Source: Candidatus Kaelpia imicola (GTDB lineage Bacteria > Omnitrophota > Gorgyraeia > Kaelpiales > Kaelpiaceae). From it: a DNA stretch of 43,792 nt. The position numbers and the translations under genes are program-made. Within the stretch, counting starts at the first letter, position 1; every line of letters begins with the position of its first letter. The DNA lies in contig JAVCCL010000035.1 of assembly GCA_030765505.1 (NCBI GenBank), positions 1 to 43,792 of the forward strand. The letters run 5' to 3'. Positions 28,152 to 31,481 of the stretch are shown here, piece by piece. The notes beneath the pieces are model-generated. The model was not told the DNA's origin. It ran no database searches and was given only the letters and a program-made list of their open reading frames with translations.

Positions 28152-28734
28152 CGGTATTATAGAAGAGGTAGCTCAACTTGAGAGTATAACCAGGAAGTCC
28201 AGCTATTATGAGCTTAAGGTTAGAAGTAAAAAGATCATAAAAGAATTGGCCTTAGGTGATAGCATAGCTGTAGACGGGGTCTGTCTGACCTTAAAAGCTA
28301 AAAATAGGGATAGGCTTATCTTTGATGTTATAGACGAAACTTATTCAAATACTAAGCTTAAATATCTCAGGAGGGGAAGATTAAATTTAGAACGGGCTTT
28401 AAAGTTAGGCGATAGAATCTCCGGTCATATCTTAACAGGCCATGTTGATACTGTTATATCTGTAGCAAAGATAGAGAAGAGAACTAAGAGGTTAAAGCTA
28501 TATTTAAAATTGCCTTCTAAATATAAACATCTGATTGTCGATAAGGGGTCTGTTGCCTTAGACGGGGTAAGCCTTACCGTACAGGATTTAAAGCCGGACT
28601 CATTCTCTGTTGCCATTATACCCTATACAGAAGAGCGGACGAATCTGGGTGATTTAAGAGTCGGCTCCAAGGTAAATATTGAGTTTGATCTATTCGGTAA
28701 ATATGTAGACAAGAGATTAAAGGCCGGGGCGTAG
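28144..28734 (+). CDS. ribE: Riboflavin synthase, alpha-type
   Basis: The two lumazine-binding halves are visible: 'MFSGIIEEVAQL' with 'GDSIAVDGVCLTL', and 'GHILTGHVDTVISV' with 'KGSVALDGVSLTVQDL', in a 196-residue protein. It dismutates two lumazines to riboflavin. It overlaps ribD by 8 nt. Its last three codons and TAG stop lie inside the following tRNA gene: the stop is T8-A9-G10 of the tRNA. Confidence 0.95.
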   Translation: MFSGIIEEVAQLESITRKSSYYELKVRSKKIIKELALGDSIAVDGVCLTLKAKNRDRLIFDVIDETYSNTKLKYLRRGRLNLERALKLGDRISGHILTGHVDTVISVAKIEKRTKRLKLYLKLPSKYKHLIVDKGSVALDGVSLTVQDLKPDSFSVAIIPYTEERTNLGDLRVGSKVNIEFDLFGKYVDKRLKAGA

Positions 28735-28802
28735 CTCAGCATGGCTAGAGCGCTTGGTTCGGGACTAAGAGGCCGCTGGTTCAAATCCAGTCGCCCCGAC
28801 CA
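28725..28802 (+). tRNA. tRNA-Pro(CGG), CCA encoded
   Basis: The cloverleaf folds by hand. Acceptor CGGGGCG/CGCCCCG with discriminator A and CCA; D stem GCTC/GAGC; anticodon stem CTTGG/CTAAG with loop TTCGGGA (anticodon CGG); T stem GCTGG/CCAGT with loop TTCAAAT. 78 nt. The C1-G72 pair and A73 agree with bacterial tRNA-Pro. The first 10 nt overlap the end of ribE. Maturation of the tRNA would cut the ribE message at its last codons. Confidence 0.95.
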
Positions 28803-28941
28803 GATTAGACATTGTGATTTTTGAGGGAAAGAAAGATTCTCTTTTGACTTCTTTTCTGCCGAAATTTTGCCTTTTTTCTAAAGAACAACAAAAATCAAAA
28901 TATTTTCTCAAAGGAGCCGATTTTAGTTTATTTTTCTAAGG

Positions 28942-28996
28942 ACTTACAGTATAATATGGCCTGAAAGTAATGGTTATATATGACTGGTAGTATAAT
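28942..28996 (+). promoter_or_regulatory. Two controller-protein boxes, each fused to a TATAAT
   Basis: ACTTACAGT (28942-28950) leads into TATAAT (28950-28955), and ACTGGTAGT (28983-28991) leads into TATAAT (28991-28996). Both fit the ACTnnnAGT palindrome known from C-protein operators of type II R-M systems. Neither -10 has a good -35, as expected if the C protein regulates them. Spacing between the boxes is 41 bp, four helical turns. The rest of the 28803-29027 gap shows only AT-rich sequence with imperfect inverted repeats. Confidence 0.6.
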
Positions 28997-29027
28997 ACCA
29001 TATACATATCCAAAGTCAAGGGCTTAA

Positions 29028-29240
29028 ATGTTATCCGTCAATATTAAGAAATTAAGAAAACAAAAAAAGTTATCTCAAGATCAACTTGCCAGATTGGCAG
29101 ACATCCCATATAATACTTTGGTAAAAGTTGAATCTGGCAAATCAAATAATCCTACTTTTGAAACGCTTTCTAAATTGGCTGACGTTTTTGATGTTACTAT
29201 TGATGATTTAGCAGGAAAGAAGAGGAATAGCAAAAAATGA
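29028..29240 (+). CDS. XRE-type HTH regulator, probable R-M controller (C) protein
   Basis: The 70-residue protein is a single helix-turn-helix domain: 'IKKLRKQKKLSQDQLARLA', 'IPYNTLVKVESGKSNNPTFE', 'LSKLADVFDVTIDDL'. The size and position match C proteins that time restriction after methylation when the cassette enters a new host. Its stop overlaps the methyltransferase start (ATGA). ACTnnnAGT boxes upstream support self-control. Confidence 0.82.
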   Translation: MLSVNIKKLRKQKKLSQDQLARLADIPYNTLVKVESGKSNNPTFETLSKLADVFDVTIDDLAGKKRNSKK

Positions 29241-30613
29241 AAGATCGGACACTGCATAAGATAGTTATTGGCGACTCACGGCAGATGAATGAAGTAAAAG
29301 ATAATTCAGTCCATTTAGTAATTACATCACCTCCTTACTGGCAACTTAAAGATTATGGGTCTAAGGCTCAAATTGGCTTTAATGATTCATATCAGGATTA
29401 TATCGATAATTTAAGCAAGGTCTGGAAAGAATGTTACAGAATATTACATCCGGGTTGTAGATTGTGTATTAATATAGGAGATCAATTTGCACGAGCAGTT
29501 ATTTATGGTCGATATAAAGTTATTCCCATAAGGACTGAAATTACTAAATATTGTGAGTCAATAAGTTTTGACTATATGGGTGGAATTATTTGGCAAAAGG
29601 TTACAACATGCAAAACTACAGGCGGTGCTACTGTGATGGGTTCTTACCCTTATCCACGGGGGGGCATAATTAAAATTGATTATGAATTTATTCTAATATT
29701 CAAAAAATTAGGCAAAGATATAAAACCGAGTGTAGAAATAAAAGAAAAATCTAAGCTTTCAAAGGAAGAATGGAACGAATATTTTAATGGGCATTGGAAT
29801 TTCCCTGGTGAAAAACAAAATGGCCATATTGCAATGTTTCCTTTAGAGCTGCCAAGGCGGTTAATTAAAATGTTTAGTTTCTACGGTGATACAGTTTTGG
29901 ACCCATTTTTAGGAAGCGGTACTACATTAAAAGCAGCTTTAGAATTAAAGAGAAATTCTATTGGTTATGAAATAAACAAAGAATTTTTGGAGACAATTAA
30001 ATCTAAGATTGGTGTACCCAAAGAACCCCTACTTTATAAAAGAAACTTCGATTACGAAATTATTTTTCAAAAACAAAATAGTAAGAATGAAAACGAAAAG
30101 AGCATCTCTGCCAAGATCAATAATAGCAATAATCATTTAGAGAGATTAACTGACCCAAAGCAATTTAGATTCGGGACTGTAATAGATAATAGCGGCAGAA
30201 GAGAAAGGGTGGATACATATAGAGTAAAAATTATTCCTCAGCCAGATGAAATAATATTAGATTCAGGATTAAAAATTAAACTTTTAGGAATTTGCCCTGC
30301 CGAAGATCAAACATATAAAAATAAAGCTATTGAATTCCTGAAGAATATGACATCTGGCAACAGAGTCTTTTTGAGATACGATGATTTAAAATTTGACAAG
30401 AAAAAAAATATTTTAGCTTATCTTTATTTAGCTAATAAAACATTATTAAATGCTAAATTGATAACAAATGGTCTTGCAGGATGTAACAGGGAATTAGATT
30501 TCCGGCTTAAAAATAGATTTATGAGATATGAAGAAGAAGCGAGGAATGCTAAACTTGGTATATGGGGCAAGAAAAAGAAAGGACAAACATTATGCCTAAA
30601 GAGTGGATCCTGA
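29237..30613 (+). CDS. N4-cytosine/N6-adenine DNA methyltransferase fused to an SNase-like domain
   Basis: Residues 1 to about 260 form a beta-class amino-methyltransferase: catalytic motif IV 'TSPPYW' (31-35) comes before SAM motif I 'VLDPFLGSGTT' (D222). SPPYW favours N4-cytosine methylation. After a linker (about 265-308) residues about 310-450 resemble staphylococcal nuclease: 'VDTYRVKIIPQP', 'LKIKLLGICPAE', 'NILAYLYLANKTLLNAKLI', 'EEEARNAKLGIWG'. By manual alignment E356 matches SNase Glu43, but Arg35 is Lys348 and Arg87 is Asn391, so nuclease activity is doubtful. It lies between the C protein and the endonuclease and overlaps the latter by 22 nt. Confidence 0.85.
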   Translation: MKDRTLHKIVIGDSRQMNEVKDNSVHLVITSPPYWQLKDYGSKAQIGFNDSYQDYIDNLSKVWKECYRILHPGCRLCINIGDQFARAVIYGRYKVIPIRTEITKYCESISFDYMGGIIWQKVTTCKTTGGATVMGSYPYPRGGIIKIDYEFILIFKKLGKDIKPSVEIKEKSKLSKEEWNEYFNGHWNFPGEKQNGHIAMFPLELPRRLIKMFSFYGDTVLDPFLGSGTTLKAALELKRNSIGYEINKEFLETIKSKIGVPKEPLLYKRNFDYEIIFQKQNSKNENEKSISAKINNSNNHLERLTDPKQFRFGTVIDNSGRRERVDTYRVKIIPQPDEIILDSGLKIKLLGICPAEDQTYKNKAIEFLKNMTSGNRVFLRYDDLKFDKKKNILAYLYLANKTLLNAKLITNGLAGCNRELDFRLKNRFMRYEEEARNAKLGIWGKKKKGQTLCLKSGS

Positions 30614-31224
30614 ATCAGGCAAATATGAGATGGGGATTAACAAGAAAAACCAAAGTAGGTTCAGTTTCAGAATTAATAAGAAAATGCTCTCCCAAAGCTG
30701 TTAAGGTATGGGAAGAATATTATTATAAAAATGTTTATTCCAAACAGCATTTGGAACAACTTGGGAGAGTGCTATATATGAAGATAACAGAAGTATGCCA
30801 GGCAGAGATTGAAAGTTTAACAGAAGAAGATTGTATTAATTTTATTGTCAATCTTGTAGTAAATCGGACATACGATGGTTATCAATCAGAAATTCAAACT
30901 ATTTATGGTCAGTTACAACAGATGCTGGGAGTTAAAGTTGAACCTGCCTCGGATGAGTGGGATAGAGGGTATAATGTAGATTTTTTCATCAAAATAAAAG
31001 GTCGATATATTGGACTTCAAATCAAACCAGCAGGATATGCTTATATCACACAGATTATCAACGAATTGAAATTTCAGAAAAAGACGCACGAAAAATTTAC
31101 TACTAAATATGGCGGGAAAGTTTTTTATATTATTTCTGTGAAAGAAGGCGATAAAAAGAAAATTTATAATACAGGTGTAATTGAGGAGATTAAACAAGAA
31201 ATAGCGAGATTAGAAAATGAGTAA
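30592..31224 (+). CDS. Type II restriction endonuclease, MjaI-like
   Basis: This 210-residue protein begins 'MPKEWILNQANMRWGLTRK'. ATG 30592 is preferred because AAAGGAC lies 8 nt upstream; a farther ATG at 30562 would overlap the methyltransferase more. The catalytic core is a PD-(D/E)XK variant: D in 'YNVDFFIKIKG' and 'YIGLQIKPAG' (QxK). Flanking text such as 'NRTYDGYQSEIQTIYGQL' and 'EWDRGYNVDFF' is what I recall from MjaI-family (CTAG-cutting) enzymes, but this was not checked against a database. It cuts unmethylated foreign DNA, with protection by the methyltransferase just upstream. Confidence 0.75.
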   Translation: MPKEWILNQANMRWGLTRKTKVGSVSELIRKCSPKAVKVWEEYYYKNVYSKQHLEQLGRVLYMKITEVCQAEIESLTEEDCINFIVNLVVNRTYDGYQSEIQTIYGQLQQMLGVKVEPASDEWDRGYNVDFFIKIKGRYIGLQIKPAGYAYITQIINELKFQKKTHEKFTTKYGGKVFYIISVKEGDKKKIYNTGVIEEIKQEIARLENE

Positions 31225-31414
31225 AGAAACTGACAAGAAAAAAATTAGAAGAGCGTTTAGAAAAGGAAAAAAGTCTGCTAAAACAGCAGATGAGATACAA
31301 AGAGAAACAGGAATTGAGAGCAGTAGAACGCAAGAGCCTATACGTGGGATGATTAGAGAACTTATCAGAGAGGGGTTGCCAGTAGAGGTTTGCCTAAATG
31401 TGGATAGAGGATAA
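31217..31414 (+). CDS. Small basic protein, possible winged-helix, in the R-M operon
   Basis: The 65-residue, very basic protein overlaps the endonuclease stop by 8 nt. Residues about 22-55 ('TADEIQRETGIESSRTQEPI') look like a helix-turn-helix followed by a basic recognition helix 'RGMIRELIREG'. I do not recognise a family. Translational coupling suggests it belongs to the restriction cassette, perhaps as a second regulator or DNA-binding accessory. The following 67 bp (31415-31481) contain no further gene. Confidence 0.55.
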   Translation: MSKETDKKKIRRAFRKGKKSAKTADEIQRETGIESSRTQEPIRGMIRELIREGLPVEVCLNVDRG

Positions 31415-31481
31415 TAAAGATAGAAGAAGAGCTAAAAGAAGTGATTAAAAACTTGAAAAGTAGAAGTAAAGGAGGTGTTAG

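What the first reader, a model, noticed from the sequence alone, without database searches (positions are those of the whole stretch)
29237..30613. DNA methyltransferase fused to an SNase-like domain with altered catalytic arginines
An SPPYW amino-methyltransferase carries a C-terminal domain resembling staphylococcal nuclease. By manual alignment Glu43 is kept (E356) but Arg35 becomes Lys348 and Arg87 becomes Asn391. A nuclease-like fold inside the protective enzyme of an R-M system is unexpected. It may be a DNA-binding or target-recognition module, or a weak second effector.
Basis: partly seen in the sequence, partly recalled or inferred. Interest (0 to 1): 0.7.

Follow-up and report, generated by a model that had tools for sequence, protein, structure and literature searches.

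The report
Methylase with degenerate nuclease-like tail
A DNA-protecting methylase of a bacterial restriction system carries a tail with the fold of a nuclease whose cutting site has decayed; the same fusion recurs in bacteria of at least nine phyla, so the tail has probably become a DNA-holding part of the methylase.

Summary
Window 29237-30613 encodes a beta-class SPPY DNA methyltransferase (residues 1-262), a linker, and a C-terminal domain that is a true homologue of staphylococcal nuclease (Pfam SNase E=9e-14; predicted fold matches SNase at E=3e-8). K348 and N391 do sit at the Arg35 and Arg87 positions. 'Glu43 kept' is not robust: the DTPE catalytic loop is lost in all 20 fused copies examined, 18 by deletion, the window and its sister by a different sequence. 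Nine of eleven stand-alone SNases used as controls keep it. The fusion is no local oddity: 20 copies, one cluster on the tree, at least nine phyla, 16 of 20 beside an MjaI-type restriction gene. M.MthZI (CTAG) and a 66%-identical relative lack the domain, so it is an accessory. Basic charge, conservation without the catalytic loop, retention in apparent orphans and the CcrM precedent favour a non-catalytic DNA-binding or dimer-assisting module; weak residual nuclease activity is not excluded. The window copy lies in a cassette (HTH regulator, M, R) beside tRNA-Pro; a congener keeps the cassette-free site. I found no published description in the open-access library. New variant of a known kind, moderate interest.

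The parts
29237..30022 (+). beta-class SPPY amino-methyltransferase core (residues 1-262; catalytic motif S31-PPYW, AdoMet motif DPFLGSGTT)
   Evidence: Pfam PF01555 E 1.1e-45; full-length model best PDB match 2zie/2zig TTHA0409, E 8.5e-22
30023..30211 (+). linker (residues 263-325), mostly low confidence in the model; most homologues carry a conserved segment LPYIFKDP..DKKIDPKKL.FGSKID here, which is altered in the window copy
   Evidence: pLDDT below 50 at 282-324; alignment A2
30212..30580 (+). degenerate SNase-fold domain (residues 326-448): D337 (Asp21 kept), K348 (Arg35), C353/P354 (Asp40/Thr41 lost), E356 (ambiguous Glu43), N391 (Arg87 lost)
   Evidence: Pfam SNase E 9.1e-14, Foldseek E 3e-8 to SNase, alignment with 11 stand-alone SNases
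30592..31224 (+). MjaI-family restriction endonuclease; ATG at 30592 has an AAAGGA upstream, a longer start at 30562 is possible; overlaps the end of the methylase gene
   Evidence: Pfam RE_MjaI E 5e-42; sequence
29028..29240 (+). 70-aa Cro/C1-type helix-turn-helix protein, candidate controller (C) gene; its stop overlaps the methylase start (ATGA)
   Evidence: Pfam HTH_3 E 5.9e-17; sequence; an 84%-identical gene lies at the same place in G108
31217..31414 (+). 65-aa ORF of unknown function overlapping the end of the restriction gene
   Evidence: sequence, no Pfam match over cut-off
28725..28802 (+). tRNA-Pro(CGG), left boundary of the inserted cassette
   Evidence: ARAGORN; the congener G094 has ribE, tRNA-Pro, Yip1 without the cassette

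Best explanation
The gene is the protective methyltransferase of an MjaI-type (probably CTAG, N4-methylcytosine) type II restriction-modification cassette. In one lineage of this methyltransferase an SNase domain was fused to the C-terminus and lost its metal-binding and catalytic loop. The remaining basic OB/SNase fold most likely works as a tethered, sequence-non-specific DNA-binding and perhaps dimer-assisting module. It would hold the duplex, for instance the strand not being methylated, while the N-terminal domain recognises and methylates the site, as the unrelated C-terminal domain of CcrM does. Shown: fold, homology, loss of active-site residues, recurrence in one cluster of methylases, linkage to the restriction gene, absence from related enzymes. 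Inferred: DNA binding, CTAG specificity, lack of nuclease activity.
For: SNase homology by Pfam in 13 of 13 members scanned, by a profile search of PDB sequences (SNase E 3e-4), and by fold. Twenty fused copies from at least nine phyla need a single change of label on the tree of methylase cores (support 60/60, so a single origin is allowed, not proven). In fused copies Asp19 is kept in 0/20, Asp21 in 4/20, Asp40 in 0/20, Thr41 in 0/20, Arg87 in 4/20; in 11 stand-alone SNases the counts are 11, 9, 8, 8 and 9. The domain is still constrained: 13 invariant columns in A2 and dN/dS about 0.06 in the one unsaturated pair. All 20 fused domains are basic, pI 9.0-10.3, net +3 to +17. The fusion persists in L009, L011 and L016, where no MjaI gene was found nearby, so docking to the restriction enzyme is unlikely to be its only role. 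CcrM precedent: C-terminal non-specific DNA-binding domain whose deletion abolishes activity (PMC6787082). CTAG inference: the G181 restriction enzyme beside a fused methylase is 53% identical to R.MthZI, and M.MthZI is a characterised 4mC CTAG methylase (PMC5867850).
Against: No binding or activity data. Stand-alone SNases can be basic too (pI up to 9.6). L044 (66% identical core) and M.MthZI work, or presumably work, without the tail. SN domains of Tudor-SN with mostly degenerate catalytic residues can still cleave RNA (PMC5900569), so inactivity is not certain. The tail evolves faster than the core (63% against 87% identity to the sister copy).
Confidence: 0.6

Rival explanations
1. The tail is a weak or altered nuclease, a second effector that nicks DNA or degrades nucleic acid.
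For: D337 sits at Asp21; a basic residue is kept at Arg35 in 20/20; four copies keep R at Arg87. In Tudor-SN, SN domains with one retained calcium-binding Asp still support RNA cleavage (PMC5900569).
Against: The Asp40-Thr41-Pro42-Glu43 loop is deleted in 18/20 and replaced in the other two. No alternative acidic cluster or histidine appears in its place among the invariant columns.
Confidence: 0.12
2. The tail is a protein-protein module that binds the MjaI restriction enzyme or mediates methylase dimerisation, rather than binding DNA.
For: In the phylum sample all 8 intact fused copies sit beside a RE_MjaI gene. An SN1-SN2 groove of Tudor-SN is reported to bind a partner (PMC5900569).
Against: Apparently orphan fused copies L009, L011 and L016 keep the domain. 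The partner restriction enzymes fall in divergent sublineages (27-36% identical) while the methylase tail is of one kind.
Confidence: 0.2
3. The tail is a vestige without function, kept by chance after a gene fusion.
For: Catalytic residues lost; a close relative (L044) and M.MthZI lack it.
Against: Present in many phyla with conserved core residues and low dN/dS in one pair.
Confidence: 0.08

Closest known systems
MthZI system of Methanothermobacter plasmid pFZ1 (M.MthZI plus MjaI-family restriction enzyme, CTAG)
   Same: Beta-class SPPY methylase core (35% identity) next to a PF09568 restriction gene; that the pFZ1 gene is M.MthZI is from my own knowledge
   Different: 355 aa, no SNase domain; restriction gene convergent; no HTH gene annotated between or beside them
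M.MjaI / M.BfaI / HVO_0794 4mC CTAG methylases
   Same: Same class; M.MjaI pairs with the namesake restriction enzyme (PMC5867850; M.MjaI sequence not compared directly here)
   Different: 303-364 aa according to the paper, too short for the added domain
CcrM (C-terminal non-specific DNA-binding domain)
   Same: Beta-class methylase with a C-terminal add-on that holds DNA
   Different: The CcrM add-on resembles SAND/PWWP, not SNase; adenine methylation of GANTC (PMC6787082)
Tudor-SN / SND1 SN domains
   Same: SNase folds with degenerate active sites reused in a larger protein
   Different: Eukaryotic RNA-binding protein; some SN domains remain active (PMC5900569)
TTHA0409 (PDB 2zie/2zig)
   Same: Closest solved structure of the methylase core
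   Different: 297-aa chain without an SNase domain

Membership tests
SNase (PF00565) | SNase/OB fold by sequence and structure | tested here: met
   Pfam E 9.1e-14; Foldseek E 3.2e-8, TM 0.77 to target
SNase (PF00565), active nuclease | Catalytic set Asp21, Arg35, Asp40, Thr41, Glu43, Arg87 | tested here: not met
   Window reads D, K, C, P, E (ambiguous), N; 0 of 20 fused copies keep Asp40 or Thr41. Member of the fold family, not of the canonical active nucleases
Beta-class N4C/N6A methyltransferase (PF01555) | [D/S]PP[Y/F] motif before the F.G.G AdoMet motif | tested here: met
   S31PPY, then DPF224LGSGTT; PF01555 E 1.1e-45
4mC CTAG methyltransferase | Methylation of CTAG | not testable with these tools
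   Inferred from the MjaI-family neighbour and the G181 MthZI-like restriction enzyme; CTAG is the rarest 4-bp palindrome against expectation in the window (37 seen, 115 expected), weak because CTAG is rare in many bacteria
MjaI-type type II R-M | RE_MjaI gene next to the methylase | tested here: met
   30592-31224, E 5e-42
R-M controller (C) protein | Small HTH protein encoded in the operon, binding C-boxes | tested here: inconclusive
   HTH_3 protein overlapping the methylase start; C-box not tested

The most novel reading that the evidence does not exclude
A widespread clade of methylases recruited a nuclease domain, disarmed it by removing the catalytic loop, and reuses it as a DNA-clamping module that assists methylation, perhaps holding the non-target strand as CcrM does but with an unrelated fold.
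Probability: 0.35. Interest if true: 0.6.

Novelty: new variant of a known kind. Interest (0 to 1): 0.45.

Why it matters
It would be a clear case of a nuclease fold turned into an accessory part of the very enzyme that protects DNA from a nuclease, found in many phyla. It adds a second, unrelated fold to the C-terminal add-ons of beta-class methylases, and natural versions with and without the tail (G181 or the window against G017) make its contribution directly testable. Such proteins also risk being misnamed as thermonucleases.

Tried and rejected
Chance resemblance to SNase: rejected by three searches. A one-off fusion or assembly artefact: rejected by 19 further fused copies. The tail as main target-recognition domain: rejected because relatives without it exist. 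'Glu43 kept': not supported by the family alignment. A single-sequence PDB search with the tail gave only a spurious repeat-protein hit; the profile search was needed. dN/dS was saturated for nearly all pairs; only L020/L021 was usable for both domains. Literature searches for the fusion returned nothing, but the library is open-access only. Phage and plasmid collections gave no fused copy (no place covers 80% of the query).

Full report
Observation. The ORF at 29237-30613 is real: 458 aa, ATG start. Pfam finds N6_N4_Mtase (residues 25-255, E 1.1e-45) and SNase (residues 356-444, E 9.1e-14, far above the curated cut-off) in it. All 13 members of an alignment of C-terminal parts from different genomes match SNase, and a profile of them finds staphylococcal nuclease chains in the PDB. 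AlphaFold2 models the domain with pLDDT above 90 over most of its length, and Foldseek places it on S. aureus nuclease (E 3.2e-8, TM 0.77 to the target, about 22% identity).

Active site. Against 11 stand-alone SNases from genomes of the same phylum, used as internal controls, the 20 fused domains read as follows: Asp19 0/20 (11/11 in controls); Asp21 4/20, with Glu in 11 (9/11); Thr22 3/20 (11/11); Arg35 R in 14 and K in 6 (R in 9/11); Asp40 0/20 (8/11); Thr41 0/20 (8/11); Glu43 0/20 as aligned (9/11); Arg87 4/20, mostly Asn (9/11). Two controls, L031 and L032, are themselves degenerate. The stretch holding Asp40 to Glu43 is deleted in 18 fused copies. The genome also carries an ordinary SNase (L071, 254 aa, with DGDT, LRLLGLNTPE and YGRLLGY), so the two kinds coexist.

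Distribution. One scan of GTDB species genomes gave 15 relatives of the methylase. Twelve read through into the tail; the other three are cut by contig ends (L013, L015) or frameshifted (L014). In 285 genomes of the window's phylum, 8 including the window's own carry the intact fusion, clearly set apart from ordinary SNases (164 bits or more against 85 or less; the 85-bit hit, in G164, is a broken fusion). The organisms named include Atribacterota, Nitrospinota, Nitrospirota, Bacteroidota, Spirochaetota, Hydrogenedentota, Myxococcota, Thermodesulfobacteriota and a Staskawiczbacteria genome. They are mostly metagenome bins, so single assignments may be wrong. On a tree of the methylase cores the fused label needs a single change, though with modest support (60/60) and a mostly unresolved backbone.

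Context. Sixteen of 20 fused genes are followed by a RE_MjaI gene: 8 of 8 in the phylum sample and 8 of 12 from other genomes. L009, L011 and L016 have none in the DNA held (L011 has only about 1 kb downstream) and L012 ends at the contig edge. The partner enzymes are diverse: G181's is 53% identical to R.MthZI, whereas the window's is only about 28%. M.MthZI is a characterised CTAG 4mC enzyme (PMC5867850), so CTAG is the likely, untested, target. M.MthZI has no SNase match. G017 holds a 66%-identical methylase without the tail beside an MthZI-like restriction gene in the opposite order.

Cassette. In the window a 70-aa HTH protein ends in an ATGA overlap with the methylase start. G108 has an 84%-identical one; it was not found at the other loci. 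The cassette follows tRNA-Pro (28725-28802). The congener G094 has ribE, tRNA-Pro and Yip1 with no cassette between, so it was inserted here or lost there; its lower GC (about 32% against 40%) favours insertion.

Mechanism. The tail is constrained (dN/dS about 0.06 for the one usable pair), basic in all 20 copies, joined by a segment modelled with low confidence, and present in apparently orphan methylases. This fits a DNA-holding or dimer-assisting role best. CcrM, also beta-class, has a C-terminal non-specific DNA-binding domain whose removal abolishes activity and which binds the non-target strand from the second subunit (PMC6787082); its fold is different. The caution is Tudor-SN: most of its SN domains are degenerate, yet SN1 and SN3, each with one retained calcium-binding Asp, support RNA cleavage (PMC5900569). 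The window copy retains D337. A residual activity is therefore possible but not favoured.

Verdict. The domain is a recurrent, apparently undescribed, catalytically degenerate SNase-fold extension in one group of methylases: a new variant of a known kind.

Noticed in passing
window 28725-31480: Cassette (HTH gene, methylase, restriction gene, plus a 65-aa ORF) beside tRNA-Pro; the congener G094 keeps the cassette-free arrangement.
   Followed up: partly
window 31217-31414: 65-aa basic ORF overlapping the end of the restriction gene; no Pfam match over the cut-off, not found at the other loci.
   Followed up: partly
L068 (G017) 3-1352; same as L044: Restriction gene precedes a 66%-identical methylase that lacks the SNase tail and ends in a different C-terminus: a natural no-tail version.
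   Followed up: partly
L032 (G052): 282-aa protein with a likewise degenerate SNase-like domain and a hydrophobic segment, not fused to a methylase.
   Followed up: no
L027 (G164) and L014: Broken (frameshifted) copies of the fused methylase gene, suggesting decay of the system in some genomes.
   Followed up: no
window 1-43792: CTAG is the most under-represented 4-bp palindrome (37 seen, 115 expected), followed by GATC (85 of 188).
   Followed up: no
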